A DNA stretch of 64,000 nt from a bacterium SCSIO 12741. Its GTDB lineage: Bacteria; Bacteroidota; Bacteroidia; Flavobacteriales_G; Salibacteraceae. Positions 41,101 to 58,775 of this stretch are shown here, in pieces; the first letter of the stretch is position 1; each line of letters begins with the position of its first letter. The DNA is taken from NCBI GenBank assembly GCA_024398055.1, contig CP073749.1:3968594-4032593 (forward strand), written 5' to 3'. The position numbers and the translations under genes were made by a program. The notes below the pieces were generated by a model. It had not been told where the DNA came from. It was given only the letters and a program-made list of their open reading frames with translations, and ran no database searches.

Positions 41101-42965
41101 TTAAAAGCCCCATCAGGAATAACAGGAAGCAATACCTCGTCCTCCTGCCCGGATGACTCAGTCAGACGGGCGTTCTCGCTCTCACACTGTAAATGCCCAA
41201 CAAGGCTGTTCCCACATTTTATCTTGTGATTCAAAAAGGTGAGGGGCCGCCCTGCCTGATGGGCCTCCAGCCAGAGCACCAGCCGGCACAATTCCACTGC
41301 ATCGGGATTGAGATCCACTCCGTAAATGCAGTGTTCAATTACATCGCGCATGGCCTGACCTTCATACAGAGCCGTAGATTCGCCCTCATCCGCTCGGATC
41401 AGGGCCAATTCTACAGCTAATGCCCGGGCTGCTCCTAACAGAAAGTGCCCGGAACCACAAGCAGGATCACATACCTTGATTCCAAGGACGGCCTCTGCCA
41501 GTTTAGTTTTCCGAAGTTGGATGGGATGGTTTTCATTTTCAGCGTTTTTTAGCCGCTTTTCGAGCACTGGGCGTAGCGCCGTTTTAAGCAATTGTTTGAC
41601 CAGGTCGTCGTGGGTATAGTAGGAGCCGGTTGTTTTTCGCGAATCTCCACCCCGATAGGAAAAGGGCATAGAGGGAGCGTCCCAGTTGATTACGGGAATT
41701 TGATCGAGTAGGGATTCGTACACCGCTCCGAACTCCTCAACATTGATTCGGGTGTAGTTAATTCGAATTTTCTGCTTCTGGTCTTTTTCAAAACGACTCA
41801 GGTGTTCAATGGCCTCCAACAAACAGCGGTTGCTCAACCGGCAATTTTGCAAGCAGGCTAAGGAATCGGGACGAAACAAATCCCCTCCCAAAGGGGCCAA
41901 GCCAAGCACTTTACCCAGACCTTCCTGCTCAAAAAAGGAAAAGGTAAATTTCAATTGCTCCCAAAGGTCATAATGACGATCGCTGCTGGCGTAATACCGT
42001 TCGGCCATCAATCGAAGTCGGGCTAGGCTATAATGGTCTCGGTACAATTTCCGTTGATCCTCATCACTGTCTTCGAAAAAGAGCAGTTGACGTTCTTCGG
42101 TAACGAATAGAAACAGTAAGCGATAGATCAGCTTTCTTAAACTATGCCCGTAGGTATGAGCGGTTAATTCATTTCGATTCAGACTTTCCCGTAAATCGCT
42201 GTTTTCCTTTTGGATCAAGAAACCGTTGCCCAGGCATTCAAGGGCATTTTGAACGGCTTTTTTGAGTTCGTTTCTAATACGATGCCCTTCTTCCACCGAT
42301 TCAAGGTGGTAATGCTCCAGCAGACAGTCGGCGGTGGGTTTGGCCGGAAAACGACTGCTGTGTAACAGGCGAAACAGGGCGGTAAAGGTGACCAGGTCAT
42401 TATCTTCCAGTATGCGCTGCAGGTCAAATTCCAGGTATTGAATACCGGTTAATCGATGGTGGTTGCGGAGCAGTCGTAATTGATGTCCGTTGCTGATCAA
42501 CCCATACAGGTGCTCGGTATGGTTTAGGTATTCCTGCATTTGCACATGGGGCGACTGACGGTTACCTCTTTCTCGTCCTGGATTTTGATCCAGGTGGTGC
42601 TTAAATCCGGTAATATGCACGGGAAGTCCGCCTAATTTGTTGTCGCGATGGCTGATGGTATAGGATTGTCCGTCAACCATTTCTGAAGAGATGTGACTTA
42701 AATCAAACCCCAGTTGACCCAAAAAGGGTATCATCCATTGATTTCGGGTTTCACTTACTCCTGTTTTATGGTCGGGAATAAGTGATTTGGCCCGTTGAAA
42801 ATTGGTCCAAAGGTTACGTGCTGATGAGAAAGCAGTGGAGATGTGATCGGAGACACGCATTCCATCGGAAATACCAAAGTCCGCTGCTGATTGTCCACCT
42901 TTTGTCGAAATGTTCTCCACCAATTGGGAGGAAAACAAGTTTGATTTAATGTCGTAGTGCTGCAT
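38130..42965 (-). CDS. drmMI: N6-adenine DNA methyltransferase, DISARM DrmMI-type
   Basis: A 1611-residue cytoplasmic enzyme. The N-terminal 450 residues hold the segment 'QEYLNHTEHLYGLISNGHQLRLLRN' and 'EFDLQRILEDNDLVTF', typical of large Eco57I/DrmMI methylases. The SAM motif is 'DPACGSGHFLL' (500-506 core); 'GVDLNPDAVELCRLVLWLE' follows. The catalytic NPPW (781-784) sits in 'VVLGNPPWERIK'. The rest is a long target-recognition and C-terminal region. I see no clear nuclease motif. It would transfer methyl from SAM to adenine in DNA. The ATG is two bases after the stop of the SNF2 gene, so they are translated together. Confidence 0.9.
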   Translation of the reverse strand: MQHYDIKSNLFSSQLVENISTKGGQSAADFGISDGMRVSDHISTAFSSARNLWTNFQRAKSLIPDHKTGVSETRNQWMIPFLGQLGFDLSHISSEMVDGQSYTISHRDNKLGGLPVHITGFKHHLDQNPGRERGNRQSPHVQMQEYLNHTEHLYGLISNGHQLRLLRNHHRLTGIQYLEFDLQRILEDNDLVTFTALFRLLHSSRFPAKPTADCLLEHYHLESVEEGHRIRNELKKAVQNALECLGNGFLIQKENSDLRESLNRNELTAHTYGHSLRKLIYRLLFLFVTEERQLLFFEDSDEDQRKLYRDHYSLARLRLMAERYYASSDRHYDLWEQLKFTFSFFEQEGLGKVLGLAPLGGDLFRPDSLACLQNCRLSNRCLLEAIEHLSRFEKDQKQKIRINYTRINVEEFGAVYESLLDQIPVINWDAPSMPFSYRGGDSRKTTGSYYTHDDLVKQLLKTALRPVLEKRLKNAENENHPIQLRKTKLAEAVLGIKVCDPACGSGHFLLGAARALAVELALIRADEGESTALYEGQAMRDVIEHCIYGVDLNPDAVELCRLVLWLEAHQAGRPLTFLNHKIKCGNSLVGHLQCESENARLTESSGQEDEVLLPVIPDGAFKPVTGDDKTVAKSLRQQNKEEREGMLRLDFAPNSMESGSRFLTHSYQQLDQLPTRSLQEVWEKERSYQQWENEPQLQKQRLLYDAWTYAFFQPYTLDQSLWVTQARLQQINEDRIDPNHPLLQRVRSEARKMAFFHWPLEFPDVFGREQDQRGFDVVLGNPPWERIKIQEKEFFASRIPEIANARNAAIRKRMIEELSSENPILQEFKWTLYRSKGLGRYLRNSSQYNLTSGGDINTYSIFSERIINLISNLGRAGTLIPTGIATDYTNRHFFRFLISGNRLISLFDFINNAGLFPDIHWSLKICLLTVNGSSSNMELKPKFGFYLSQPKELIDQLRIIETPSQELLDFNPNTHTCPLFRSIIDHEIIQGIYDRLPILIREAGQKNPFTAITHRMFDMSADSKAFKQNTLSTNEWRSHVFAMFNMSNHSSYFKFDSEQYQIDLQLDQEDLPLYEAKHIWLYNHRHSTYKLIKGKKPEHRLLEGQEQSSPNISIIPRYFVHSSAVKKRLGNILNSESKNRIVHDWLLGFRDVSCSTNQRTFVCSIFPYSAVSGKMPLIFLDQPLLLKLCFLGMVSSIPFDYVARQKVGSNSVSIFILKQLPIIPPEQFSPEDLQFIVPRVLELTYTAWDLKAFADDVWEEADPAMRKLITKRWKDNEAAIYREETDRPDWVTSKPEEFPFPPFRWDENYRHEIQCELDAYFGMKYGLNEEEMKYVLDPTLSQLTGKTQEERDSFPGETFRVLKQKEIKKHGEYRTAIRVMKAWHQKPWENESNSVKRSVRPTPMRNQQEARKIPPLMTYIIYRHQRHPAHAKKLGRVKMEKTLHLIESFAAVDLGRQPIQDEYGPADFRLLTQCEQKASDLGYFKAIEEPMENRKEGQFRTHYYKTVKFKEGLKEFEIQFQDHRPTIDHLLELTVPLNRRQTELIATVYATWNNLLMDDPYSITDEKIIRQSHNWSPTKREKFTLNEVGQALQWLQEHELEPNGKGKKVEK

Positions 42966-42967
42966 GA

Positions 42968-45835
42968 TTAAGGGGTGATTTCGGGTAAAATGATATAGAC
43001 ACCCAGTACATCAGGGGGAAGTACAGGGATCACCGATTGGTATTGGTGGCCGGTCACTGCTTTTCTAAATTGTTCGTGGCCCGTTACCATGTGTTGGGCA
43101 CGTTCGCGGGCCAGTTTGTCCAGGGTATTCTTCAATTGTTGGTAATCCCGGAGCGCGATATTAAGTTGTTGTTTCCGAATGTTATCCGGCACATTTTGAG
43201 AGGGTTGAATGTTTTGTAGTAGTTCAAGTGCCTTCAGTTGCTGATCGGGGTCAAATTGATGGGGAAGGCCTTCGTAGCCCCACAGTTTCATTTCTTCAGC
43301 CACCAGTTCGTTTTTGCCCTTTTTGTTGGCAATTACGTTTCGGATGCGTAGCAAAAACAAGGTGGTGCGTTGTTCTACTTGTTTGCTTCTAAACACGGAA
43401 GCTCGTGCAACCAAGGGGTTTTCAGAATCATTTAAGGCGCCATCCAGCAGTTTGAGGCACAGTTGCTCTACAAAGGGATGGTTTCGGCCGATATAGGTGT
43501 ATGAATTTGGAGTGGGTGAGGCAAACGAAAGCCGACAATTGGATGGATGGGGAAGGCTTTCCTTTAAGTCAACCGGAAGGTTTTGCGAGTTAAGCTCAAA
43601 TCCTTTCTCCAATGGTTTTAGCGAACAGCCAAACAAGGGCATGGCTGCTTTAACCAATTGTTCCACGGTACCAGCATCACCCAAGGCCTCTTTGCTTTCC
43701 CATAAGTAGGGAGCCAGTTCGTTGGGTTTGATACTGTTTTGAGCGAATATGGAGGTGATCTGTTTTTCTTGTTCCTCCATCCGCTCGAAGGATTCACTGA
43801 CCTGGTGTTTAATCTTTTGAACCTCATCATCCTGACCAAAGTTCAATTGAGTTTGTACACTTTCATCAGCGTTCTTTTGAGGTTTCAACAGAACTGCTGT
43901 TAACACAGCATCCATGATGCTTTTACTATCATCTGGAAAAGGGACAGAAATGCCAATGGCTTGACGGATTTTACGTGCCTTTCGTAGGAGCACCTCAAGT
44001 ACGGTTCCATCCATAGGATTGTCTTGGCCATAAAGGAGGAGGGCTTTTACTTCATCTTTGGATTGCCCAAACCGATCCACCCGGCCTTCCCGTTGCTCCA
44101 GTCGGTTGGGGTTCCAGGGAAGGTCGTAGTGAATCACGGCTGAGAAATGTTCTTGTAAATTGATTCCCTCACTCATGCAGTCGGTAGCTACGATAACCTT
44201 GCGGGTATCAGGGTTTTGGCTGAGTTGGTGGACTCTTTCCTTACGTTCTTCGTCGCTGAGTTCGGAGGTGATGATGGCCACTTCTACCTTTTTACCACCG
44301 ATTCTTTTCCATTCCTTTTGAAGTAATTCCCCCAGGTAGTTGGCTGTCTGAATGTAGCGGCAGAAAACGATGGTATTATCGGTTCTTAGCCATTTCTTTA
44401 AAACATCCCTTGCGGCAGTCGCTTTTTGATCGTGTTCCCATCCTTTCAATAGGGATACGGCCTTACCCAATTGCAGTACCGCTTTTTGTTCACTGGAGGT
44501 AAACCCGGTTCGCTGTGTCCATTCTGCGGGTGCTTGATCTTCGCTGTGGTCGAAGTCGCCATCGAGAATGGAGTGATCGGATAAAGCACTGATGTCTTCG
44601 TCGCCCAGGTTTTCTAATTGTTCTTGAGACAGACTTTTAAGCAATCGATTTTGAAGCATCGTTTCACCTGTCGCTGGACTGGACATAACACCACGTATCA
44701 GCCCGATAGCCAGGAAATAGCGCATTCTTTTTTGCCCTTCGGTGGTGTTTTTTTGCGGTTTGGTGAGCATTCTGGCCAATTGAAGAACCTGCCGGAAAAC
44801 CGCTCGATAGGCAGGTGATAGGATATAGGCCTGTTCGAGCGGAAGTCGAGTGGGAAAGGGGGTTTTCTCATCCATCCATTTTTCCACGTTTTTTCGCCTC
44901 CGCTGTACAAAGTGCTGTGCTATTTCTTTCTTAAAGGAAGGCTTGGCTTGGGTAATGTCTACGGGCTCAAAACTGGGATCAAGTAAGCCGAGCAAACTTT
45001 GAAATTCCTCTTGTTTCCCGCTATGTGGGGTCGCGGTAAGCAAGAGCAAGTGCTGTTTTTCCTTTTGGCTAATAGCTTTTAGGAGGCGATGCCGTTGCTG
45101 CTGATTCGAAGTAGCCCCCGAAGGTTGCGCGCAGGTATGCGCCTCATCCACAACCACCATTTCAGGAACATGATTGAGAAATACTTCCCGCTTTCGTTCG
45201 CCTTTGATGTAGTCGATAGAAATGACTTGAAAAGGATAGTGTTCAAAAAGAGATTCGTTGGGACCTAATTCCCGTTCCAGTTTCTTCACCGTTCCCGAGC
45301 GAATTAGAGTAGCATCAATTCCAAACTTATCCTTGAGCTCCTGGTGCCATTGGTCACACAAATGGGGTAGACAGATAATGGCAAATCGTTGAATTTCACC
45401 GCGATCCAGCTTTTCACGAACGATCATCAAGGCTTCGATGGTTTTACCAATTCCCACATCGTCGGCAATCAGAAGGCGGATCGTCTGTTGGCGAAGCGCC
45501 ATAATCAGCGGTACGAGCTGGTAGGAGCGAGGTTCAAAGGAGAGTCTACCCATGGAACGAAAGGGTCCAGCTCCGCTTCGAAAAGAGAGACGGGCGGCAT
45601 CACAGAGGAGTCGGGCAGACGCAAAGCTTCCGATGGAATGCTCTTGGGGTAAAGAAAGGCTGGCCCGTTTTACCAGGCTCCATTCATCGAATAGGTTTTT
45701 ATAGATTCCCTTGATCTCCTTTTCTGAGCCTCCAAGAGGTTTTAGTAGTAATACATCATCATTTTGGGAGGGTTGAACAACCCATTCTCGCTCATAAAAA
45801 CTCACGAGCGTCCCAGGTTTAAATTGCGTGTCCAT
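42968..45835 (-). CDS. drmD: SNF2-family helicase, DISARM DrmD-type
   Basis: A 955-residue Superfamily 2 ATPase. The ATG at 45835 fits the 'MDTQFKPGTLVSFYEREWVV' start seen in DrmD; nine extra codons upstream would overlap the helicase gene. Walker A lies in 'ADDVGIGKTIEAL' (K131), the Walker B box is DEAH (230-233) in 'VVVDEAHTCAQ'. 'RSGAGPFRSMGRLSFEPRSYQLVPL' is a family hallmark. The helicase C domain has 'ATDCMSEGINLQ' and 'REGRVDRFGQ'. The C-terminal 300 residues are helical. In class 1 DISARM such a helicase works beside DrmMI. The start is two bases after the DUF1998 helicase stop; the stop is two bases before the methylase start. Confidence 0.92.
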   Translation of the reverse strand: MDTQFKPGTLVSFYEREWVVQPSQNDDVLLLKPLGGSEKEIKGIYKNLFDEWSLVKRASLSLPQEHSIGSFASARLLCDAARLSFRSGAGPFRSMGRLSFEPRSYQLVPLIMALRQQTIRLLIADDVGIGKTIEALMIVREKLDRGEIQRFAIICLPHLCDQWHQELKDKFGIDATLIRSGTVKKLERELGPNESLFEHYPFQVISIDYIKGERKREVFLNHVPEMVVVDEAHTCAQPSGATSNQQQRHRLLKAISQKEKQHLLLLTATPHSGKQEEFQSLLGLLDPSFEPVDITQAKPSFKKEIAQHFVQRRRKNVEKWMDEKTPFPTRLPLEQAYILSPAYRAVFRQVLQLARMLTKPQKNTTEGQKRMRYFLAIGLIRGVMSSPATGETMLQNRLLKSLSQEQLENLGDEDISALSDHSILDGDFDHSEDQAPAEWTQRTGFTSSEQKAVLQLGKAVSLLKGWEHDQKATAARDVLKKWLRTDNTIVFCRYIQTANYLGELLQKEWKRIGGKKVEVAIITSELSDEERKERVHQLSQNPDTRKVIVATDCMSEGINLQEHFSAVIHYDLPWNPNRLEQREGRVDRFGQSKDEVKALLLYGQDNPMDGTVLEVLLRKARKIRQAIGISVPFPDDSKSIMDAVLTAVLLKPQKNADESVQTQLNFGQDDEVQKIKHQVSESFERMEEQEKQITSIFAQNSIKPNELAPYLWESKEALGDAGTVEQLVKAAMPLFGCSLKPLEKGFELNSQNLPVDLKESLPHPSNCRLSFASPTPNSYTYIGRNHPFVEQLCLKLLDGALNDSENPLVARASVFRSKQVEQRTTLFLLRIRNVIANKKGKNELVAEEMKLWGYEGLPHQFDPDQQLKALELLQNIQPSQNVPDNIRKQQLNIALRDYQQLKNTLDKLARERAQHMVTGHEQFRKAVTGHQYQSVIPVLPPDVLGVYIILPEITP

Positions 45836-45837
45836 GT

Positions 45838-48800
45838 TTAGTTTGTTTGAAGGGGGAAACAATGAAGGTGCTTGCGAATGAAGTCCTGTGGTGAATCATT
45901 CGGCTTCAGGGTAAGGGCTTCAATTCCTAAATTTTCAGGGGATTGAAGACTTTGATCGAGAGGGTCGTCCTCCCATTTCAAGCTGACTGGATTATGAAGT
46001 TGGATGCCCACTTGATTGGAGAAGTAACAGGCAAAAGATTGACTGCAATTACCCGGTCGAAAATGCAAGTGTTGAGGCAGCTTTCGTCGCTGGGTATGCA
46101 ATTCATCGACCAAGTTCTCAAGATCGGGGTCCATTTCTACCAATTGCTTTTTCAGCTTGAGGTAATGAGACTCGTAAGGAGAGTGCCCGTTCTCCGTTAA
46201 GCTTTGGTAGTTGGCTTTTTGAAACAGTTCCAATATGTTTTTGATGCTAAAGCGATCTATCTGGGAATGATGTCTTTGGTTGTAATAACTTAAAAGATCA
46301 TCGTAGGAAGCTTGGTGTTTGTTTCCTTCAGGATGAACGTCTTTCCCTTCTCTAAAATGGCAGATGCCATAAGCCTCTTCAGTAATCGTTTTGAAAGTTT
46401 CGGGTGAGGCCAGAAGTTGGGAGAGAATACCCAAACTGCCTTCGGTAGCTTCATAAAAGAGAATGTTGGGCATTTCAGCGTCACCCATAAGGGTACACGC
46501 CAATTCCCTGGATTCCACCTGAAAATGACGCTCCAAGGCCAATTTAAGCGCATACATTAGCGTGATTACGCCGTTACGATCCAGGTTGAGTTGGCGAACC
46601 GGTTCCAGGTAGAGGCAGTCTGCTGTGATTTGGGTATAGAGTTTAACCTCTTTAATCAATTCCAGTACCTTGGGATCTTCATCTTTCAATTGATTCACCG
46701 ATTTCCAATGGCCGCTCTTGGTCTGTAGTAAAAAGCCATTTCCTCCTTTGTTCTTTCTCCAACCACAATTCACCTGAATCAATTCAGCAGCCGGTAGTAG
46801 GTGAACGGTAATCAAGTGATCAGTTCCGTCGTGTATGTTCAGTTTTTGGCTGTATTCTTGAGACTTGTGGTAAGAGAAATAGGTCTCTATTTGATATCCC
46901 TTGCGCATCCGTTCGTTTTCCTGGCAGGAAATTCTTTGCTGTTGCCTGGCCGTCATGTCCTGCATGTTAAGGAGGTTGCCGTATTCTTCAAAATCGGTGG
47001 ATAGCAGCGTTTTACCTGAGAATTGAGAGACGTCCTTTTTTAGATCCCTATCCGGATGAAAGTAGCCCAGGTTTTTGTTGATCAAAGCCGTTTCGATCAG
47101 TTTGTTCTCCTTTTTGGAGGGGACATGAATTTGGCGGATTTTCCATTTCTGACCCTTTTGGTAAACAAAATTTTCAGGCCCAAATTCCCTAAGAGCAAGT
47201 AATCGGGGACGTTGAATGTATTCTCCTTCCGATTCACCTCCGTAAAGGAATACACGGTAGGGCAATCTCGTAAAATCGTAGCCTGGCAAAAAGCCTTCGG
47301 CAGCGAGATAGCGATATGGGTAAAACTCTGAATAGTCCTGATGTCCACCTCCTTTATTAATGAGCAGGTCCATTTTACGCTGATCGCGGTGTACTTCATA
47401 ATCAGCGTCTTTCCATTCCTGGTGGCTTTTGGTCAGCCGCGTTTGTTGCATTCGCGTAGATGCCAATTCTTTGGAATGCCTGGCTTCTTCGTATAATTCT
47501 CTCCAGCGGTTAAAAGCCTGGTTGAAACTCGTTGGTGTGTTTTTAAGTTGATCCCATATCCAGGATGGGGTGTACCAGGAGGTTTGCTCGAGTTGGTGTT
47601 CTATTCCTGAAAAAACGCGTTTAAAGTAAACTTCCAACTCCCGAATGGTTTGATCATCCAGTTTTAAACCCTCTTGAATGTTTTCGTACAAAGGCAAGCT
47701 GTGGTCATTTAAGTCCATTACCTCAGCCAGCGAACTTCTGAGTTCCTTGAGGTTGCATCGGGCCAGGTACACCGATTGAATGTGGGATTTGAGCAATTCA
47801 GGGTTGATCAAATCCAGCTTTTGGGGAATAACGGTACCTGAAACCATATCCTCTCGATGTTCGAAGTAGTGCCGGTCATGGGCAGAGTTGTTGCTGCAAT
47901 AGGTGAGAATGAGGGCGCCTTGGCCATTTCTTCCAGCTCGTCCACTCCGCTGGGCGTAGTTGGATGGGTTTGGTGGAACGTTGCGCATGTGTACCACACA
48001 GAGGTCATGAATGTCTATCCCTAATTCCATGGTGGGTGAACAAAACAGTGCTTTGACTGAGGCTTCTCTAAATTGGTCTTCAACATCTTTGCGTTCGTCT
48101 GCTTTGATTTGTCCCGAATGCTCCCGAGAAACTTTCTGCTTGTATCCCTTTGGATTGCGCTGATATTCTGCTTGATAGTAGGTGTTTGGCTCTGTATTTT
48201 GACGTCGTTTGCTTCGAATTCTAATTTCGTCCGGAACCACTGTTTTTCCATCTCCTTTAAACCACTGGATATTCTCAACGCTCAAACGATATAAGGGCAC
48301 ATCACTAAAACGGAAGACTCTGAGGTAGCCGGCCTTTTCAAGGGATTCAAGAATCGATTCTATTTCCTGATCCAGTTCCTCTTTTACGAGGGGTTTTCCG
48401 ATGAAATCAACTAATTTTTCCTTCACATAAGAACCGAATAGACTTCTATACCCAACACTTTTTGTATAAGCTTTCTTGGTTTTTGCAGGTTTGATTCTTA
48501 GATAGCTGGGATCATTTATTTTAACTTTTGGATTATATAGTGAGTCTTTTCGTAAACGGGCCTTAAAGTCTTTTTCATTTCTCCGAATTTGTTCAGCACT
48601 TAACGTGTAGTATTCAATCGCACCAGAGTGTCGGAAGTAGTTTAATACCTGAGTTAGAAAATTCAGACGCTGCACTTCATTCATTTGGCTTAATAACCGT
48701 GAGGTAGACCAGCGTTCTTCTTCTTTACACACTTCATCCAGACAGTTGTAGTGAATTCGGAGAAGGGCACATTGTTCCAGTCCTGGCATCCAGTAGGATT

Positions 48801-49191
48801 GCGACCAGCACAAGTCCTCAAATAGTTGATACTCCAGCCAGGTTTCAAAGCATTCCTCATTCTTCTGGATGTACTTGTGGTGTTTGTTAGGGTCCTTGGC
48901 AAAATCTTCCTCCTTCAATTCCATAGTTTCAAATACACGAGAAGCGATGGTGGCGTGGTCCAGGTATCCATCTTCTTGTTCGGCTGCTATTAAAGCTTGA
49001 TTGAGGCAAGACCGAATGAAGATTTGCTGCATGTAATCGTTAAAATGCCCCGATTGTAAAGCTGCGTCCTGACGGTTATCGGTAAAACTCAATACCTTTT
49101 GAATGGATCGTGAATTAGCTTCATTTTCAAGCTGTTCCAACACGCTTAAGGAGAGGAGTGTGGTTGCTTGCGTTCGATGAACACCTCCCAA
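45838..49191 (-). CDS. DEAD-type/DUF1998 helicase, C-terminal part
   Basis: The 3' part of one helicase gene, 1117 residues, read from a TTG at 49191, which is not a true start: in this frame coding continues upstream as 'GILYPSTLRDYNKLTQ' to the frameshift near 49301. It has the helicase C domain ('ALFCSPTMELGIDIHDLCVVHMRNVPPNPSNYAQRSGRAG'), a long middle part, and a DUF1998/MZB-like end ('LACTLMGDAEMPNILFYEATEGSLG', 'ASYDDLLSYYNQRHHSQIDR'). In relatives two Cys of a zinc site lie in that last segment; here they are Ser and Asp. With the 5' part it forms a protein of about 1701 residues like DruE or a DrmA/DrmB fusion. The SNF2 gene starts two bases after its stop. Confidence 0.85.
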   Translation of the reverse strand: MGGVHRTQATTLLSLSVLEQLENEANSRSIQKVLSFTDNRQDAALQSGHFNDYMQQIFIRSCLNQALIAAEQEDGYLDHATIASRVFETMELKEEDFAKDPNKHHKYIQKNEECFETWLEYQLFEDLCWSQSYWMPGLEQCALLRIHYNCLDEVCKEEERWSTSRLLSQMNEVQRLNFLTQVLNYFRHSGAIEYYTLSAEQIRRNEKDFKARLRKDSLYNPKVKINDPSYLRIKPAKTKKAYTKSVGYRSLFGSYVKEKLVDFIGKPLVKEELDQEIESILESLEKAGYLRVFRFSDVPLYRLSVENIQWFKGDGKTVVPDEIRIRSKRRQNTEPNTYYQAEYQRNPKGYKQKVSREHSGQIKADERKDVEDQFREASVKALFCSPTMELGIDIHDLCVVHMRNVPPNPSNYAQRSGRAGRNGQGALILTYCSNNSAHDRHYFEHREDMVSGTVIPQKLDLINPELLKSHIQSVYLARCNLKELRSSLAEVMDLNDHSLPLYENIQEGLKLDDQTIRELEVYFKRVFSGIEHQLEQTSWYTPSWIWDQLKNTPTSFNQAFNRWRELYEEARHSKELASTRMQQTRLTKSHQEWKDADYEVHRDQRKMDLLINKGGGHQDYSEFYPYRYLAAEGFLPGYDFTRLPYRVFLYGGESEGEYIQRPRLLALREFGPENFVYQKGQKWKIRQIHVPSKKENKLIETALINKNLGYFHPDRDLKKDVSQFSGKTLLSTDFEEYGNLLNMQDMTARQQQRISCQENERMRKGYQIETYFSYHKSQEYSQKLNIHDGTDHLITVHLLPAAELIQVNCGWRKNKGGNGFLLQTKSGHWKSVNQLKDEDPKVLELIKEVKLYTQITADCLYLEPVRQLNLDRNGVITLMYALKLALERHFQVESRELACTLMGDAEMPNILFYEATEGSLGILSQLLASPETFKTITEEAYGICHFREGKDVHPEGNKHQASYDDLLSYYNQRHHSQIDRFSIKNILELFQKANYQSLTENGHSPYESHYLKLKKQLVEMDPDLENLVDELHTQRRKLPQHLHFRPGNCSQSFACYFSNQVGIQLHNPVSLKWEDDPLDQSLQSPENLGIEALTLKPNDSPQDFIRKHLHCFPLQTN

Positions 49192-49256
49192 TTGAGTAAG
49201 CTTGTTGTAATCGCGCAGGGTAGATGGGTATAGAATACCTGAAACCGGATCGATTT

Positions 49257-50942
49257 TTAGTGGTGCCGCCAGAAACCAGGCTTGTAGGGGGAACTTTCCA
49301 TTTTTTGCCTGGTTCCGGATGAATTAAGATGAATCTTTTGTGGCAGGTAAATCGCTTTTTCTTTTTTGATGGATGTACCTGATTTTTTGGTTTCCATCCA
49401 ACTATCCGGAAGTAGTTCTTTTTCTCTTTCTGCACTCCAAAGGGGATCCTGTGGATTCTCTTCCAGGATCAAATAGCCGTTTTTTCCAGGAAAGTCTTCA
49501 CTCGGGTCAGACTCACCATCCCAGGGAATAACTCCTTTGTCACCAAGGGTTACCGGTAAATAAGGAGTTCCTGATTGACGATTAAACCAGACGGTAAACA
49601 GAGGTAATCGTTTCCCGTCTTTGTACTCAAAGGGTTTGTCGTCCTGAACTATGCTTCGTTTGCCCCGGGATTCGAGTGTTACCTTGATTTGTCCGGTCTG
49701 CTGAATAAATTGGTGAATCCGAAAGGGTAGGAAATGCCTGTGCTCAGGCAAACTTTCATTAATACGTTGAAGAACCTGGAGGTAAACATCGAGTTGCTCT
49801 TCACAAAAATCCTTGGCATGTCCAGAGTCCTGGCTAAGCAAATCAGCGATTTGCTTCACCGTTTGGGGTTTACCACGTAACCACTGATGGGTTTCTCCAA
49901 AATATTGTAAGGCTATTCGCTGCTCCATCCAGCAGCTCAGCGGGTGATCCAAAAGAGCTTTTTCATCTTTGATAGTAGATAAATCTTCGCTGACAGATCG
50001 ATGCAATTCCTCCTGCTCTGGTAGAGGTCGTCGTATTCTTTTTTGTAAGGTTTCACCGATAATTTGTTCTGGAGTATAGACTTCATCAAACAATTGTTGA
50101 CCCAGTTTGGCTACTTCCTTTTTCTGATCCTGAGGTTTGCCTGAGGAAAGGGTAGCAGACGTACCAATGCAAACCACCTTTTGTTTAGAGTGAGCTTTTA
50201 TGCGCCGAATGAGCAAGGCGACATCAGCCCCTTGTCGTCCTCGATAAGTGTGCAGTTCATCAAATACCAGAAACCTCAGTTGATCGGTAATAGCTTGGCT
50301 CAAACCGGATTCTTTGGCTCGTGTAAGCAACAGTTCCAGCATCATGTAATTGGTTAAAAGGACATGGGGAGGATTTCTGATCACTTCCTTCTTTTCCTGA
50401 TCGTCTTCTTGTCCCGTATATTTTTTAATGTTGATGGGAAAGGAATGCTTACCGTACTGATCTTCATATTCTCTTTTTAAATCCTCTGTTGAGTCGAACT
50501 GGCTGTTGATCAAGGCATTCATAGGATATACGATAATGGCTTGAACACCCTTTCTCTCTGTTTCCGGTCTTTGCAGCACTGAATTAAAAATGGTACCTAA
50601 GTACGTCAAAGACTTACCCGATCCGGTCCCAGAAGTCACGATAAACCCTTTGTTCTGTGCACCTAACTGAATAGCTTCGGATTGGTGTTTGCGGAGAATA
50701 TACTTGGCGAATATTTTGTCCATTTCCGGGTGAAGCAAGTCCTGATCAACAAGTTCTGCGATTGATTCGCCATTCTTAAATCCGGGATTACATTGGAGTA
50801 AAGGGTCTGGCCAAAGTTTTTGACTGTCAATGATATGCTGTGCCTTGGCCCGCAATTCGTCATCGCGGATGTCCATTAGGCTTTCTACGTAGCTCTGGTA
50901 TTTATCAATAATGGCCTTGCGAAGTTTAAGTACGTTGATCAT
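49257..50942 (-). CDS. DEAD-type/DUF1998 helicase, N-terminal part (frameshifted)
   Basis: The 5' part of the helicase, 561 residues. The ATG at 50942 lies 10 bases after the CD-NTase B stop; an earlier start would overlap that gene. It has the Q-motif-like 'LRKHQSEAIQLG', Walker A in 'SGTGSGKSLTY' (K110), 'VYPMNALINSQ', the DELH box (228-231) in 'FDELHTYRGRQGAD', and motif III 'GTSATLSSG'. The end 'GTRQKMESSPYKPGFWRHH' is out of frame: if one base is added at the T run (minus-strand A run) at 49301-49306 it reads 'QKNGKFPLQAWFLAAPLKI' and joins the 3' part. So this and the next are one gene, 45838-50942. Confidence 0.85.
   Translation of the reverse strand: MINVLKLRKAIIDKYQSYVESLMDIRDDELRAKAQHIIDSQKLWPDPLLQCNPGFKNGESIAELVDQDLLHPEMDKIFAKYILRKHQSEAIQLGAQNKGFIVTSGTGSGKSLTYLGTIFNSVLQRPETERKGVQAIIVYPMNALINSQFDSTEDLKREYEDQYGKHSFPINIKKYTGQEDDQEKKEVIRNPPHVLLTNYMMLELLLTRAKESGLSQAITDQLRFLVFDELHTYRGRQGADVALLIRRIKAHSKQKVVCIGTSATLSSGKPQDQKKEVAKLGQQLFDEVYTPEQIIGETLQKRIRRPLPEQEELHRSVSEDLSTIKDEKALLDHPLSCWMEQRIALQYFGETHQWLRGKPQTVKQIADLLSQDSGHAKDFCEEQLDVYLQVLQRINESLPEHRHFLPFRIHQFIQQTGQIKVTLESRGKRSIVQDDKPFEYKDGKRLPLFTVWFNRQSGTPYLPVTLGDKGVIPWDGESDPSEDFPGKNGYLILEENPQDPLWSAEREKELLPDSWMETKKSGTSIKKEKAIYLPQKIHLNSSGTRQKMESSPYKPGFWRHH
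49301..49306 (-). other. probable 1-base deletion in A6 run (frameshift site)
   Basis: A6 on the minus strand (T6 on plus) in the helicase gene. One more A gives an open frame of 1701 residues through both halves with the SNF2 and CD-NTase genes tightly packed on each side. Confidence 0.75.
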
Positions 50943-50952
50943 GAGGTAAGAT

Positions 50953-51993
50953 TTAAGCTTGTTTGCAATAAGTTTTGATGGAGGGGCCAAAGAGCTTGAC
51001 CAGTAGTTTTAGGCTTTCATCGTATTCGCCCTTTCTGTCGAGAAGGATGGCTTTCTTTAGTGGGGGTAGGGATTCCTTAAACCATCGGCCCAGTTCGTCT
51101 ATCTTGGATATATTCCATTTCATAACCACATTGTTGGATTTATCCAAGGGGTCCATTACATGCCAGTGCTGGTTAGGGGATAGGTCATAATTTTTGACAT
51201 GCTTTGTGAATAAAACAGGTTTACGGTGTTCAATTTCGGCCTGAATGAATTCGAACCATTTGTACAAGGTTTCAGGATAAGTCTGAGCTACCTTTACCCG
51301 GTCAAAGGCCTTGGCGCAGAGTAGGTCGAGTAGAAAACTGGGAACTTTCGTATCGTTTTTTCCATTGCCAAATAGGCCTTTCTCACTTTGCCGTTGATAA
51401 CGCCACCATTTTACCAAACGAAGGCAGTTGTTAAAGTGAACAGCTTCATTCATTCCTTGGCTACATGCGGTTCGTGCTTGGATGAAGCGGGTATGCTCCT
51501 TTACCGACGATCGCCTGGATTGGTGGTCCGTGCGGTTCAGTTGAAACACGCCGGGTTTTTCCGTTGTGATCAAGGGAACGACGTCAAACGAGAGGCGATC
51601 CGCCTTAAAACTGATTGTGGCAGAGCTTTTTGTATGACCTACAGCGCTATCAGGATAGTGGTCGCGTAGGTATTCTTCCAGTACCAGAATGATCGAAGTA
51701 AGGGATTTTCCTTTAAGGTCTTCGTTCTTCAAAATAAAGACCAGGTCAATATCCAATCCTTCCACTTCGTTTGGGCCTTCCAGATGTCTTCGGAGTCCGG
51801 TTTTTTTGGCAAATGATCCCGCCAATGTAGATCCTGAAAGCGTATAACTATCAGAGGCTAACCGCTTCTCGATATACCCGATAATTTCCTTCGCTCTATG
51901 TTCGTACTTTCTTCGCCGTTTGGGATCCGGGGAGATAAATTGCACGAAGCAGTTGAATCGATTTTGGATGGGGGAGTTTTTGGGAGTTTTCAT
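50953..51993 (-). CDS. CD-NTase B (CBASS-type nucleotidyltransferase)
   Basis: A 346-residue cytoplasmic nucleotidyltransferase of the OAS/cGAS-like (CD-NTase) class. G59-S60 in 'LAGSFAKKTGLRR', D81-I-D83 in 'GLDIDLVFI', and D137 in 'SFDVVPLI' form the metal site; 'DPLDKSNNVV' later is the usual nucleotide-binding turn. All are intact. It makes a cyclic or linear oligonucleotide second messenger; the product cannot be read from sequence. Over the first 140 residues I count 67 identities (about 48%) and no gap against CD-NTase A at 53769, so the two arose by duplication. It lies 23 bases after the SAVED gene and 10 before the helicase. Confidence 0.9.
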   Translation of the reverse strand: MKTPKNSPIQNRFNCFVQFISPDPKRRRKYEHRAKEIIGYIEKRLASDSYTLSGSTLAGSFAKKTGLRRHLEGPNEVEGLDIDLVFILKNEDLKGKSLTSIILVLEEYLRDHYPDSAVGHTKSSATISFKADRLSFDVVPLITTEKPGVFQLNRTDHQSRRSSVKEHTRFIQARTACSQGMNEAVHFNNCLRLVKWWRYQRQSEKGLFGNGKNDTKVPSFLLDLLCAKAFDRVKVAQTYPETLYKWFEFIQAEIEHRKPVLFTKHVKNYDLSPNQHWHVMDPLDKSNNVVMKWNISKIDELGRWFKESLPPLKKAILLDRKGEYDESLKLLVKLFGPSIKTYCKQA

Positions 51994-52016
51994 GTGCTTA
52001 AGGATTGATGTTGAGC

Positions 52017-53714
52017 TTATTGAAGCTTACTTTCTACCAGAGATTGTATGACCTCTTTGATCTGATTGGCCTCTTGATTCTGAAATCCATCTATCAGGTT
52101 CTGCAGAGGAAAGAACCCTTCTTCATGAGCAAAAGATCGAGCGATTCCGTTATGTAAAATGGATAGCCCGATGTCTTTCTGTTGCGCGGTGAAATCGTAG
52201 ACAACCTTATTTCGGGTATCGGTTTTGGCATTCATCCGCAATTCCAGAATGGGCTTTTGAGCAAGCAAGTCGAGAAACTGGTTTAGGTTTATAGAACGGT
52301 CTGCCTGGACTCGTTCACGTAAATAGTACCAAATCAGGTATCGGTTTACACGGTGGACCTCCATTTTTTGAATCCGGCCATTGGCTCGGTCAAAAGCCCA
52401 AAGGGTTGAGAGTAAAACATCAATCGAACGAATTAGCTGCTCGGCAGGTGAATCAACCAGGATGCGGTCAAAGAATATCCAGTGAATTAACGCGTATACA
52501 TCAGATTGATAAACAGCTTCTTCCAGTACTTTGGGATACAGATTCCAATAGCGTAATTTCTCGGATTGAATTTTATGAAAATGACGTAATGCAGATTCAC
52601 CTAGACTAAAGAGTCTGATGGCCAATCTACGGTTGTCTTCCTGAGGCAATTCTTCCCTAAGGGCCTTCATAAAAGCGTCCGTAAAGAAGTAGTAGTTTTC
52701 TTCTGACTTTGAAGAGTGATTTTGGTCCAAATAACTAAAATCCAGATTCAACTCCTGAATGGGTTTTAGCGAGTTCCAATACGCGGCTTGAAAGGATTGG
52801 AAATTGGATTTGTTATCGGGAGCTATATCCTTGAACCAGTGTTTGGCCTGTTGACCATGCTTTTCTACAATCTCATTTTTATACGATTCTACATCCTCCC
52901 GCAGGGCTAATCTCAGAGATTTAAAATGCTCCTTTTCCTTTGGAGCTATTTCCAGCAGCTTAGCATTAAGCTCTTGATTGACCGTAAAGGCCAATTGATA
53001 GTGAGGAGATTTGTCTCGAGCGAATTCATAAACATGCACAAAGGGATGTGCTGTTGGGCTTATTTCCTGCCCCAATTTAAAGGACATGCCCACTGGAATG
53101 GCGGCAAATAGATGAATGTCTTTTACCCTGGGCAGGTTTGAGACTATTTTGTCCAATAGGTCCCTAAAGGCCCCGGCATACTTCGACAAATGCTCTGACG
53201 AAACAAACACATCACCGCCTCGATTGGGAGGGGCAATTTCGAGATCTTTGTTAGATTGACTCACTGCAGCCTCAATGTCTTCCAGGTGAATCTCGAATCG
53301 GGTCCCAAAGCGAATGGTTACGGGCCCTTCAGCCTTGTTTCGTTCTTCTGGAACTTCCTTGAGGATAGGTTCGTCGAGTTGACCCTCTGACCATCGCCAA
53401 TCTTTGGCATCATGATGTTTTTGGAAAACTTCTACGGGACGGTAGGATTGCACCCGAGTTCCTAAATGAATGGCCAAAGGGATTGGGGCTAATCCGAAGT
53501 AACAAATCTGATAGTTGGGATAATCCTCCAACACGGGGAGCACTCTTTCATCAAACAGTTTGTTTTGTTGAACCAATAAAGTTGGCCAATGAATGTCCTT
53601 AGCCTCACCAAGTTCCAATTTGATCGGTTCAATTTTAACCGGTTGCCACGGCAAGGCTTTCCAGGTATCGGGTAAAGCTTCTTTGATTTCTTGATCTGTT
53701 ATTTCGCCAATCAC
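52017..53714 (-). CDS. SAVED-domain protein with orphan helical C-terminal domain
   Basis: A 565-residue cytoplasmic protein. The start is GTG at 53714, as no in-frame ATG exists between it and the upstream stop. Residues about 40-247 form the SAVED fold that binds cyclic nucleotides: 'YQICYFGLAPIPLAIHLGTRV' and 'IHLFAAIPVGMSFKLGQEI' with 'HPFVHVYEF'. In known CBASS and CRISPR receptors an effector lies N-terminal to SAVED; here SAVED is first and about 318 helical residues follow, without a nuclease or protease motif that I can find. That part may bind the caspase. Placed between the two CD-NTase genes (54 bases from A, 23 from B). Confidence 0.85.
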   Translation of the reverse strand: MIGEITDQEIKEALPDTWKALPWQPVKIEPIKLELGEAKDIHWPTLLVQQNKLFDERVLPVLEDYPNYQICYFGLAPIPLAIHLGTRVQSYRPVEVFQKHHDAKDWRWSEGQLDEPILKEVPEERNKAEGPVTIRFGTRFEIHLEDIEAAVSQSNKDLEIAPPNRGGDVFVSSEHLSKYAGAFRDLLDKIVSNLPRVKDIHLFAAIPVGMSFKLGQEISPTAHPFVHVYEFARDKSPHYQLAFTVNQELNAKLLEIAPKEKEHFKSLRLALREDVESYKNEIVEKHGQQAKHWFKDIAPDNKSNFQSFQAAYWNSLKPIQELNLDFSYLDQNHSSKSEENYYFFTDAFMKALREELPQEDNRRLAIRLFSLGESALRHFHKIQSEKLRYWNLYPKVLEEAVYQSDVYALIHWIFFDRILVDSPAEQLIRSIDVLLSTLWAFDRANGRIQKMEVHRVNRYLIWYYLRERVQADRSINLNQFLDLLAQKPILELRMNAKTDTRNKVVYDFTAQQKDIGLSILHNGIARSFAHEEGFFPLQNLIDGFQNQEANQIKEVIQSLVESKLQ

Positions 53715-53768
53715 GGAGTGTTTTAGGATTATTAGTCCAGGGGGAGAGTGGTGTTCATTTTAATTGAT

Positions 53769-54797
53769 TTACACGTTTTTGCATTGATTTTTAATGGAAT
53801 CTCCAAAAAGGAAGGTCAGGTATAACAGGCTTTCAGAGTCATTCTTGAGGGAATCGCTTGCGATGGCATTAGAAATTTGATTGGCTGAATCATTAAGCCA
53901 GTATGTTAACTCGTCAATTTCACATATGCACCAGTCCTCGGCAATGTTGTTTGAACGATCCATGGGATCTATAACTTCCCAGTTCCAGGTATCCGAAGGT
54001 TGATGATTACCAAATACAACGGGAAGGCCATCGCGGACTACCTCAGTTAGATAATCAAACCACTCGAAAAGAGTCTCGGCATAAGTTGCTTTAACTCCTA
54101 ATTTGTCATAAGCTTTGGCACAAAGTAGATCCAGCAAAAAACTAGGTACCTTTTTATCTCCTTCATGGTTTCCAAAGACATCCGATTCACTCTGCATATG
54201 ATACCGCCACCACTTCACCAGCCGCAGGCAGTCATTAAAACGTACCACGCCTTCGACTTCATTGCTCGACCGGTTGCGCTTTCTGATGAATTCTACCTGT
54301 TTTTGGGCCGATGATTGTCTATCTGTTCCCTCGGTTCGGATTAGTTTTTGAATATTCTCTCGATTCGTTTTGATTAGCGGAACAGCATCAAAATTTTGTT
54401 TGGAACCGGTAAAATGAATGGTGGCGGAGCTCTTGGTGTTACTTATTTCTGAGTCTGGGTAGCATTTTTTGAGGTAGCCTTTAAATCGATGAATCATGCA
54501 GTCTAAAGCGTTCCCATCTTTGTCCTTATCTTCTAATAAAAATACAATATCAATGTCCTGACCTTCTACTTCATCCTTGCCGAGTAAGTACCGACGCAAC
54601 CCGGTTTTCTTGGCAAATGATCCTGAATAGGCAGAGGAAGCGATGGTATAACCGTCCTCCTTGGCATGTTTTTCAATGCAGGCTCGGATTTCAGCCGATT
54701 GTTGTTTGATTTTGTCCCGTTTTTCTTTTTCTGGGGCAATGAAATCCACAAAGCATTTCATGCGTTTGTGGATGGTGGAATGGGTGGATACTTTCAT
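53769..54797 (-). CDS. CD-NTase A (CBASS-type nucleotidyltransferase)
   Basis: A 342-residue CD-NTase. G59-S60 in 'SGSFAKKTGLRR', D81-I-D83 in 'GQDIDIVFL', D137 in 'NFDAVPLI' and the late 'DPMDRSNNIAEDW' mirror those of CD-NTase B at the same residue numbers. All metal-site acids are intact, so both paralogues should be active. The ATG lies four bases after the caspase gene stop, so the two are coupled. It makes a second messenger from NTPs, presumably sensed by the SAVED protein next to it. Confidence 0.9.
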   Translation of the reverse strand: MKVSTHSTIHKRMKCFVDFIAPEKEKRDKIKQQSAEIRACIEKHAKEDGYTIASSAYSGSFAKKTGLRRYLLGKDEVEGQDIDIVFLLEDKDKDGNALDCMIHRFKGYLKKCYPDSEISNTKSSATIHFTGSKQNFDAVPLIKTNRENIQKLIRTEGTDRQSSAQKQVEFIRKRNRSSNEVEGVVRFNDCLRLVKWWRYHMQSESDVFGNHEGDKKVPSFLLDLLCAKAYDKLGVKATYAETLFEWFDYLTEVVRDGLPVVFGNHQPSDTWNWEVIDPMDRSNNIAEDWCICEIDELTYWLNDSANQISNAIASDSLKNDSESLLYLTFLFGDSIKNQCKNV

Positions 54798-54801
54798 GTG
54801 G

Positions 54802-55785
54802 TTAAATTTTTTCGTGATTATGTAGTTCTAAGTAAAAATTGCCCAATGCACTGAGTTGGTAGGGGCGTTTTAATAAGGCTGATAAGTAGATGGAATTGTT
54901 ATTTGGACATTCAATCAATCCAGCCCGTTGGTATTGAATAAGCTGTTCAAATCGCTGAATTTTATCGGTCTTTTTGAGATCTATACATACTTCATGAGGA
55001 TATAGTTGTACGGGATCCTTTCGTTCCAGATGAAAACGCTTGTTCTTCAATTCTCTAATACTTTGATGATCCAGAATGGCATGTCCCAAGCGAAGGGTAT
55101 TTAAGTTGGTAGAATTGGATTTGAATAAAGGGCGCTGCTGACCGGCTGTAAAATAACTATCCGCCAAAGCGTATAATGAGGCAGGCGTAATTTGTCCAAA
55201 GAGGTCTGCTGCCGCTCCTTGCAAACCATAAAGTAGCGCTTTAGTGAATAGCCCATGGATTCGATCCTCTCCAGCAACATCAGGCCCAGTGGTAGCAGCT
55301 AGTAGGGTAACGTTTTCGCGAATACATGAAACAGGAAATGACCCATTCATTGGGTTGGAGTTTTTCTCGGTATCTCCTATAAATCCGGCATGACAACAGT
55401 CCAGAATTACCGTTATAGAAGGAATTGAGGATTTATTTATTCGATTCATCAATTGAACCAGGCTAATACCCGGATCTTCCAATGAACTGTCTCTGCAAAC
55501 CAGATAGACGTCATTTTCAGTTCTGTATCCATGACCTGAAAAGAAAAAGAGTACATGATTGCAACCCCGAACATCAGAGAAAAGATTATCCAAGGCATAT
55601 TCAACCTTTTCCTTCCTTGAATTTTTCTTAAGGACAACATCGTCAAAGTTTACATCTCCATTTGCATGCCGCTTAAGCAGGTGTGCTACTTCTGTAGCAT
55701 CATTAACACAGCAACTAAGCGAAGAGGTAAACTCGTACTTATTTATCCCTACGCTAAGCGTTTTTTGAGTGAAATTTTTGTGCAT
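54802..55785 (-). CDS. caspase-like (C14) cysteine protease
   Basis: A 327-residue protein, first gene of the operon. The caspase fold covers about 5-235: H85 in 'VLFFFSGHGY' and C131 in 'VILDCCHAG' are the catalytic pair, and 'GLFTKALLYGLQG' is the late strand and helix. The last 80 residues ('KTDKIQRFEQLIQYQRAGLIECP', then 'LSALGNFYLELH') are a small helical module, perhaps for docking. Caspase-like proteases are death effectors in bacterial immunity; a role as the output of the SAVED/CD-NTase set is inferred. A promoter with TAGATTTG lies about 30 bases upstream. Confidence 0.9.
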   Translation of the reverse strand: MHKNFTQKTLSVGINKYEFTSSLSCCVNDATEVAHLLKRHANGDVNFDDVVLKKNSRKEKVEYALDNLFSDVRGCNHVLFFFSGHGYRTENDVYLVCRDSSLEDPGISLVQLMNRINKSSIPSITVILDCCHAGFIGDTEKNSNPMNGSFPVSCIRENVTLLAATTGPDVAGEDRIHGLFTKALLYGLQGAAADLFGQITPASLYALADSYFTAGQQRPLFKSNSTNLNTLRLGHAILDHQSIRELKNKRFHLERKDPVQLYPHEVCIDLKKTDKIQRFEQLIQYQRAGLIECPNNNSIYLSALLKRPYQLSALGNFYLELHNHEKI

Positions 55786-55814
55786 TTATCAGCCGTTTTT
55801 GAGTGATTAAAACT

Positions 55815-55842
55815 CAAATCTACAACTGTAACTATCAGTAAA
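55815..55842 (-). promoter_or_regulatory. candidate promoter of the defence operon
   Basis: On the minus strand TAGATTTG at 55822-55815 fits TAnnTTTG, about 30 bases before the caspase ATG at 55785. TTTA about 17-20 bases upstream could be a weak -33 box. Confidence 0.45.
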
Positions 55843-55988
55843 GCAGCGGTGTGTGTTGATTTCAAGGTATTTTGGGATGGTTGAGAATTGATTCATCCAT
55901 GAATACCATTATCAGCTTAAATGGAGATGAATTCGAAGGAAAAGAGGTTGGTTAGGTAAACTTAAGCGGAGATGAGAATAAGAGTGGG

Positions 55989-56636
55989 TTAATCTTGATT
56001 ATAGTAACCATTGATTACACCAAATCGAACCAAATCTTGAACGTTTTTGGAACCCGTTTTTTTCATCAATTTGTTTCTATGTGTTTCAATCGTAGCGGGT
56101 GAGAGGTTTAACTCGTCTGCAATAAGTTTTGTAGGTAACCCTTTAGTAATGAGATAAAGTACCTCTTCTTCACGAGAAGAAAGTTTGATTTCTTTAATTC
56201 TATCCTCATCGTCAGGAAACTCGGTATCGAACCAGGTATCCCTTACCTCCCTTGAAAAATAGCGCTTTCCGGCTGCCAGTGTCTTGATGGCTTCAACAAC
56301 TTTCCTTCCACTTTGATTTTTAAGCAAATACCCTTTAGCGCCGTTTTGGATCATCATCATTATTCGCTCTCGATCAACATACATGGATAGAATTAAGACT
56401 TGAATATCTGGATGCTTTTCAGTTAACTCTTTGAGTGTAGACGCAGCTTCTCGCATGCCGGGCATACCTATATCGAGTACCATGACATCAACGTTTTGTG
56501 TTTTGGCTATTTCGAGTGCCTCCTCACCGTTAAGTGCTAATCCTGTGATTCGAATTTCTTCTTCAGAATCCTTTAGAATTCGAACGAGTCCATCCAAAAC
56601 CATTTGATGGTCGTCTGCAAGTGCTACGTGTATCAT
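55989..56636 (-). CDS. NarL/LuxR-type response regulator
   Basis: A 215-residue regulator. The receiver has D8-D9, phospho-acceptor D55 in 'MVLDIGMPG', and 'YLLKNQ' with the late Lys. The LuxR-type helix-turn-helix spans about 150-205 ('LSSREEEVLYLITKGLPTKLIADELNLSPATIETHRNKLMKKTG'-like segment, here read in parts). The ATG overlaps the corrected stop of the kinase by ATGA, the classic coupled arrangement. It is likely the partner of that kinase. It lies 203 bases upstream of the caspase operon on the same strand, so a role in its control is possible but not shown. Confidence 0.93.
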   Translation of the reverse strand: MIHVALADDHQMVLDGLVRILKDSEEEIRITGLALNGEEALEIAKTQNVDVMVLDIGMPGMREAASTLKELTEKHPDIQVLILSMYVDRERIMMMIQNGAKGYLLKNQSGRKVVEAIKTLAAGKRYFSREVRDTWFDTEFPDDEDRIKEIKLSSREEEVLYLITKGLPTKLIADELNLSPATIETHRNKLMKKTGSKNVQDLVRFGVINGYYNQD

Positions 56637-58677: not shown

Positions 58678-58775
58678 TAGTTTAAGGTCTTTCAAGGAAG
58701 TAAAGGTAGTGTGGATTGAAGAAAAACAAAATCGACCCATCCTGATTGGTCATGAAGTGATGGGTCGATCATTGA

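What the first reader, a model, noticed from the sequence alone, without database searches (positions are those of the whole stretch)
45838..50942. One large DUF1998 helicase split by a single indel
The 5' part ends in unlike sequence and the 3' part has no proper start. Adding one A at the A6 run (49301-49306) gives 1701 continuous residues, with 'KFPLQAWFLAAPLKIDPVSG' bridging the halves and 'LTQLGGVHRTQATTLLSLS' as in relatives. A7/A6 slippage could also be phase variation or transcriptional slippage.
Basis: partly seen in the sequence, partly recalled or inferred. Interest (0 to 1): 0.55.

Follow-up and report, generated by a model that had tools for sequence, protein, structure and literature searches.

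The report
Broken-looking defence helicase, likely assembly error
A large anti-phage helicase gene looks cut in two, most likely because one DNA letter was lost while this genome was assembled; the more unusual point is that the gene sits inside an operon that also carries a cell-death signalling module.

Summary
In detail: 45838-50942 (-) is one helicase gene read in two frames. The homologue is a single open frame in 80 of 80 named-genome loci. The best explanation is a consensus error in the assembly. The same genome shows 9 such frame breaks in 464 kb against 0 in 400 kb of two relatives. Of the 9, 8 lack one base and 8 lie near a homopolymer. Two are confirmed by domains. The A6 run is not proven to be the site: 13 crossing points over 49278-49314 score alike, and a C5 run also lies there. 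The split parts helicase motifs I/II from VI, and nothing supports phase variation or recoding.

The gene is the YprA/DruE-type helicase of an ARMADA Type I-like system. In this family, 4 of 4 such operons also hold a histidine kinase, response regulator, caspase and SAVED protein, and 3 of 4 hold CBASS cyclases. These four helicases form one clade and lack the C-terminal nuclease motif that 75 of 75 others have. I read this as a nuclease-less ARMADA joined to CBASS. That coupling is inferred, not shown.

The parts
49257..50942 (-). 5' part of the YprA/DruE-type helicase: N-terminal region, RecA1 with motif I GTGSGKS and motif II DELH
45838..49323 (-). 3' part of the same gene (frame open from 49323, first TTG 49191): RecA2 with motif VI RSGRAGR, weak MZB/DUF1998, C-terminal tail
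49257..49323 (-). overlap of the two frames, in which the one-base change must lie; profile scores favour 49278-49314 without resolving it
49301..49306 (-).
49287..49291 (-). C5 run, equally possible site
45838..46296 (-). 152-residue C-terminal tail that matches the nuclease domain of other homologues in length, with conserved acidic residues (alignment columns 60, 94, 111, 116) missing or replaced
42968..45835 (-). SNF2/RapA-like helicase (best PADLOC label DpdE, then DrmD); motifs intact
38130..42965 (-). Eco57I/PglX/DrmMI-like adenine methyltransferase; DPACGSG and NPPW present
50953..51993 (-). second CBASS oligonucleotide cyclase (CD-NTase), GS / DxD / D residues present
52017..53714 (-). 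SAVED protein with an unassigned C-terminal domain (PADLOC CBASS effector PDLC00754)
53769..54797 (-). first CBASS oligonucleotide cyclase (CD-NTase)
54802..55785 (-). caspase-like peptidase with SGHG and DCCHAG catalytic-dyad motifs
55989..56636 (-). LuxR-family response regulator
56563..58740 (-). TPR-containing histidine kinase

Best explanation
One intact gene in the living cell, shown broken in this assembly by a one-base consensus deletion in or near a short homopolymer. It encodes the YprA/DruE-type helicase of an ARMADA Type I-like anti-phage operon (helicase, SNF2 helicase, PglX-like methyltransferase), which in this bacterial family is joined to a CBASS-type module (cyclases, SAVED protein, caspase) behind a two-component regulator. 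Shown: the two frames, the intact homologues, the excess of like frame breaks in this genome, the operon and its conservation, and the loss of nuclease residues. Inferred: that the cell's own gene is whole; that the methyltransferase marks self DNA; that the two helicases act on unmarked phage DNA; and that this is passed to the cyclases, so that a cyclic nucleotide activates the SAVED protein and caspase.
For: The homologue is one open frame in 80 of 80 named-genome loci and in the 3 family relatives that have it (two of these three are also among the 80). Frame-break scan at the strict setting: 9 in 464 kb of this genome (8 in the 400 kb outside the window) against 0 in 200 kb of G001 and 0 in 200 kb of G030; 8 to 0 in equal lengths gives p 0.004. 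Of the 9, 8 lack one base, and 8 have a run (A/T of 5 or more, C/G of 4 or more) within 30 nt, against 38.6% of random places. Domain proof for two others: a sigma-54 activator whose AAA domain ends at 168/168 in one frame with its lid and HTH_8 in the next, and CarbopepD_reg_2 followed by Plug in a TonB-type receptor. The gene has no other stop or break over 5.1 kb. The operon from caspase to methyltransferase has gaps of at most 54 nt.
Against: No reads were seen. One of the 9 breaks has no run nearby (L125 6548), and one is a shift of the other kind (L113 6814). At the looser setting G030 also gives 2 events with long flanks and 4 in all, G001 gives 0 and 1, and this genome 11 and 18. Some loose events are probably false; one appears by eye to lie in an RNA gene. 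Homopolymer length spectra show no clear deficit of long runs. The two control genomes differ in G+C. The sensitivity of the scan was 21 of 36 and 29 of 42 simulated deletions at the loose setting and was not measured at the strict one. A real recent mutation in one gene is compatible with all of this. For the coupling of the two halves: G004 has no cyclase match and G028 keeps HORMA and TRIP13.
Confidence: 0.78

Rival explanations
1. A genuine recent inactivating mutation: the helicase is a young pseudogene in this strain and the defence system is off.
For: A lone frame break with otherwise clean frames is what a very young pseudogene looks like. Defence genes are often lost (general knowledge).
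Against: The same kind of break occurs in unrelated genes of this genome, including a sigma-54 activator and a TonB-type receptor. The core motifs of the other genes checked are intact.
Confidence: 0.15
2. Reversible switching: slippage of DNA or RNA polymerase at the A6 run makes a mixed population or a mixed pool of transcripts.
For: The break lies in a stretch that includes an A6 run.
Against: Six bases is short for such a tract (general knowledge). The site is not placed in the A run. None of 80 named-genome homologues is split there. Runs of six or more A or T are common in this window without breaks.
Confidence: 0.04
3. Programmed -1 ribosomal frameshifting joins the two frames.
For: A lysine AAA codon within A6 could slip back by one base (inference).
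Against: The in-frame codons CAA AAA ATG do not form an X_XXY_YYZ heptamer. The downstream fold is ordinary: z -1.57, 16 of 200 shuffles as good. No named-genome homologue is split.
Confidence: 0.02
4. A true two-subunit helicase made from two genes, as DISARM splits DrmA and DrmB.
For: YprA proteins are split into two genes in DISARM and sporadically elsewhere (PMC12458937, section 8).
Against: [quoted passage not shown] Here the break parts motifs I/II from motif VI. The 3' part has no start that keeps its homologous first residues.
Confidence: 0.01

Closest known systems
ARMADA Type I (Bell et al. 2025, PMC12458937; abstract, passages and sections 7-8 read)
   Same: YprA-family helicase most like Druantia's, then a BrxHII/RapA-like helicase, then a PglX-like methyltransferase, in that order.
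   Different: The helicase tail has lost the nuclease residues here, and three family relatives lack the tail altogether. CBASS genes, a caspase and a two-component pair lie upstream. The paper's main text has 0 occurrences of CBASS, SAVED, caspase, CD-NTase and two-component; its supplements were not read.
Type III CBASS with a SAVED effector (PADLOC PDLC00754 kind)
   Same: Cyclases above the curated cut-off for CBASS_cyclase_a, and a SAVED protein of the same effector family. Relative G028 also has HORMA and TRIP13. A stand-alone locus in G312 has cyclase, TRIP13 and SAVED effector.
   Different: No HORMA or TRIP13 gene in the window. A caspase and the ARMADA-like core share the operon. G004 has no cyclase match.
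DISARM / Druantia
   Same: Shared helicase family, SNF2 and methyltransferase relatives.
   Different: No separate DrmB, DrmC or DruH gene seen among the operon genes scanned; the gene set is that of ARMADA.

Membership tests
ARMADA Type I | YprA/Druantia-like large helicase | tested here: met
   PADLOC DruE models are best for both halves (5.3e-43 and 4e-40); motifs I, II and VI present. MZB match 22.6 bits, just under the cut-off 24.2.
ARMADA Type I | BrxHII/RapA-like SNF2 helicase | tested here: met
   DpdE 8.9e-177, DrmD 4.7e-94, BrxHI/HII 1.1e-57
ARMADA Type I | PglX-like methyltransferase | tested here: met
   DrmMI 2.5e-79, Eco57I 3.2e-20, weak PglX matches
ARMADA Type I | gene order helicase, SNF2, methyltransferase | tested here: met
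   window, and most of the 80 loci where the contig reaches that far
ARMADA Type I | C-terminal predicted active Vsr-type nuclease on the YprA protein | tested here: not met
   Residues lost in the window, tail absent in L026, L027, L028; motif present in 75 of 75 other named loci with the tail in view, 3 more being cut by the contig end. That the domain is Vsr-like rests on the paper: a search of solved structures gave only 3hrl at E 0.19. Hence filed as ARMADA-like, not as a member.
ARMADA Type I | BrxA-like insertion; place in the YprA family tree | not tested
   no fold and no tree with reference clades was made
CBASS | CD-NTase of a CBASS cyclase family | tested here: met
   247.1 and 236.6 bits against cut-off 200; catalytic residues present
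CBASS | effector with a nucleotide-sensing domain | tested here: met
   SAVED 6.1e-42; PDLC00754 1.1e-101
Type III CBASS | HORMA and TRIP13 regulators | tested here: not met
   No such gene between caspase and methyltransferase in the window; present in relative G028
Programmed frameshift gene | conserved split at the same place in homologues | tested here: not met
   0 of 80 named-genome loci split
Phase-variable gene | mixed tract lengths in the population | not testable with these tools
   needs reads
DISARM-type two-gene YprA | split between helicase core and DUF1998 part | tested here: not met
   break lies between motif II and motif VI

The most novel reading that the evidence does not exclude
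A clade of ARMADA-like systems has swapped its weapon. The DNA-handling helicases no longer carry a working nuclease; they serve as the sensor that switches on a CBASS-type cyclase, whose signal activates a SAVED protein and a caspase, all under a dedicated two-component regulator. It would be a restriction-like recogniser wired to cyclic-nucleotide cell death.
Probability: 0.28. Interest if true: 0.75.

Novelty: new variant of a known kind. Interest (0 to 1): 0.4.

Why it matters
For the finding as given, it matters as a caution: frame breaks in this assembly should not be read as biology without reads. For the operon, a joint ARMADA-CBASS unit with a lost nuclease would offer a direct way to ask what activates a CBASS cyclase, a question that is open for many CBASS types (general knowledge), because the neighbouring DNA-translocating proteins are the obvious candidates. 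The rating 'new variant' is for the operon; the split itself is probably not a real feature.

Tried and rejected
Placing the lost base by homologue profile: not possible within 49278-49314. Homopolymer length spectra as a sign of deletion bias: inconclusive. A first frame-break scan with a high penalty missed the known break, because a stop-then-start path was cheaper; it was replaced. Pfam check of other breaks: five were given; two gave domain proof, L114 8275 and L130 did not, and L125 13934 has domains only after the break. Fold of the SAVED protein: mean pLDDT 54.5, too poor to name the C-terminal domain; a Foldseek search found only weak Cap5 SAVED matches, none at E 0.001 or better. PADLOC's label 'Peptidase' for it was not confirmed. 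The first genome-contig scan with one protein found nothing; the alignment scan gave 418 relatives, of which the best 80 were kept. Viral contigs: 3 loci; L112 intact, L110 cut by the contig end, L111 broken at another place. Paper searches that showed no ARMADA-CBASS union: (0 papers; 0 papers), seen as listings only, apart from the papers named.

Full report
What was checked. The two reading frames at 45838-50942 (-) are as described. Aligned with three family relatives (G004, G030, G028; loci L026, L027, L028), the 5' part is homologous up to 'LPQKIHLNSSGT' and the 3' part from 'AWFLAAPLKIDPVSG' to near its end. The relatives are single open frames of 1666, 1621 and 1606 residues. There is no second full copy in the genome: the other four matches of the 3' part are short helicase stretches.

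Homologues. A scan of named genomes with an alignment of the three relatives gave 418 relatives, and the best 80 were kept. In 80 of 80 the helicase is one open frame, 1522 to 1867 residues, some cut by contig ends. Two of the 80 (L030, L031) are the same records as G030 and G028. Of 3 viral contigs, one is intact, one is cut by the contig end and one is broken elsewhere. So, in this material, the split at this place is private to this assembly.

Where the change lies. It must lie in the overlap 49257-49323. I scored read-through peptides at 22 crossing points against a profile of 81 homologues. Thirteen of them, 49278-49314, score 1936.0 to 1938.6 bits, the other nine 1923.7 to 1932.9. This stretch holds both an A6 run (49301-49306) and a C5 run (49287-49291).

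Why an assembly error. A hidden-Markov scan for changes of coding frame, trained on each genome's own long frames, was run on 464 kb of this genome (the window and 20 spaced stretches of 20 kb), 200 kb of G001 and 200 kb of G030. At the strict setting it found 9, 0 and 0 events; at the loose setting 18, 1 and 4, of which 11, 0 and 2 had 150 bases or more on both sides. Of the 9 strict events, 8 are of the kind 'one base missing', and 8 have a homopolymer within 30 nt, against 38.6% of 5000 random places. I gave five of the other eight to Pfam. Two are confirmed by domains, a sigma-54 activator and a TonB-type receptor; three gave no clear proof either way. These genes are not expected to be switched or decayed together. 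The assembly is one contig of 5.1 Mb with 95.9% completeness, which would suit a long-read assembly; the method is not known to me. Insertion-deletion errors as a cause of shortened proteins in long-read metagenome assemblies are described in PMC13087279 (passages read).

Why not recoding or switching. The in-frame codons CAA AAA ATG do not make the usual heptamer. RNA folding of the stretch is ordinary (z -1.57). Runs of six or more A or T are common in the window. The break parts motifs I and II (GTGSGKS, DELH) from motif VI (RSGRAGR), so neither product alone should be a helicase, and the place is not the DISARM place of splitting.

What the gene is. PADLOC's best models are DruE for both halves, DpdE then DrmD for the next gene and DrmMI for the third. 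The set and order match ARMADA Type I of Bell et al. 2025 (PMC12458937; abstract, passages and sections 7 and 8 read). That paper reports that an ARMADA Type II cluster protects E. coli from phages by a direct, non-abortive route.

The larger operon. Upstream, in one direction, are a TPR histidine kinase, a LuxR-type response regulator, a caspase-like peptidase, a CBASS cyclase, a SAVED protein and a second CBASS cyclase. From caspase to methyltransferase the gaps are at most 54 nt. The relatives keep this: G030 has kinase, regulator, caspase, cyclase, SAVED and the core. G028 has the same with two cyclases plus HORMA and TRIP13. G004 has kinase, regulator, caspase, SAVED and the core, but no cyclase match in its genome. 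In the order sample of 42 genomes, the 4 with a strong helicase match are 4 of the 5 with a SAVED match; the fifth, G039, is weak. In the class sample of 395, 10 have the helicase and 3 of these the SAVED match, all three in this family. In the phylum sample of 395, 25 have the helicase and 1 of these, this genome, the SAVED match. Profiles of cyclase, SAVED and kinase found nothing in the other 78 named loci. The caspase profile found one weak match (L060, 1.3e-6) and the regulator profile two (L073, L058). Many of these loci are short on the upstream side.

The lost nuclease. Among the 78 named loci without this module, 75 show the motif DF..DG..HD in the tail; the other 3 are cut by the contig end before it. 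In the window the tail keeps its length (152 residues) but not the conserved acidic residues. In L026, L027 and L028 it is gone. On a tree of 82 rows the four helicases form one group (SH-aLRT 100), the window branching first (support 81, quick tree). This is one lineage, so it counts as one event, not four. Druantia I and II also carry inactivated tails of this kind (PMC12458937), so loss by itself is not proof of a new function.

How it most likely works. Shown: the parts, their order, their motifs, their conservation. Inferred: the methyltransferase marks self DNA, the two helicases engage unmarked phage DNA, and the cyclases, SAVED protein and caspase carry out a cell-level response, perhaps triggered by the helicases. 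Against the strong form: G004 lacks a cyclase match, G028 still has HORMA and TRIP13, and no contact between the two halves is shown. A simpler reading is that two defence systems share one promoter and regulator.

Verdict. The split is most likely an artefact. The operon is a variant of known kinds, worth an experiment.

Noticed in passing
window 50953-58740: CBASS-type genes (two cyclases, SAVED, caspase) and a two-component pair sit directly upstream of the ARMADA-like core, an arrangement kept in three relatives with gains and losses.
   Followed up: yes
window 45838-46296: Degenerate nuclease tail on the helicase; tail absent in L026, L027 and L028, motif present in 75 of 75 other named loci with the tail in view.
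   Followed up: yes
L118 14887; L125 6548; L125 13934; L114 8275 and 2573; L128 11664; L130 19800; L113 6814: Other apparent frame breaks in the same genome, most near homopolymers.
   Followed up: partly
L170 9256-10701: In G030 a 481-residue protein carries the C-terminal domain of the SAVED effector family (PDLC00754 positions 262-593) without a SAVED match, next to a 1590-residue protein with no Pfam or PADLOC match.
   Followed up: partly
L169 7729-11920: G312 has a stand-alone CBASS locus of the same effector family (cyclase, TRIP13, SAVED) with no ARMADA-like helicase match in that genome at E 1e-80 (class sample).
   Followed up: partly
window 36820-37773: Gene after the methyltransferase, 317 residues, no Pfam or PADLOC match.
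   Followed up: no
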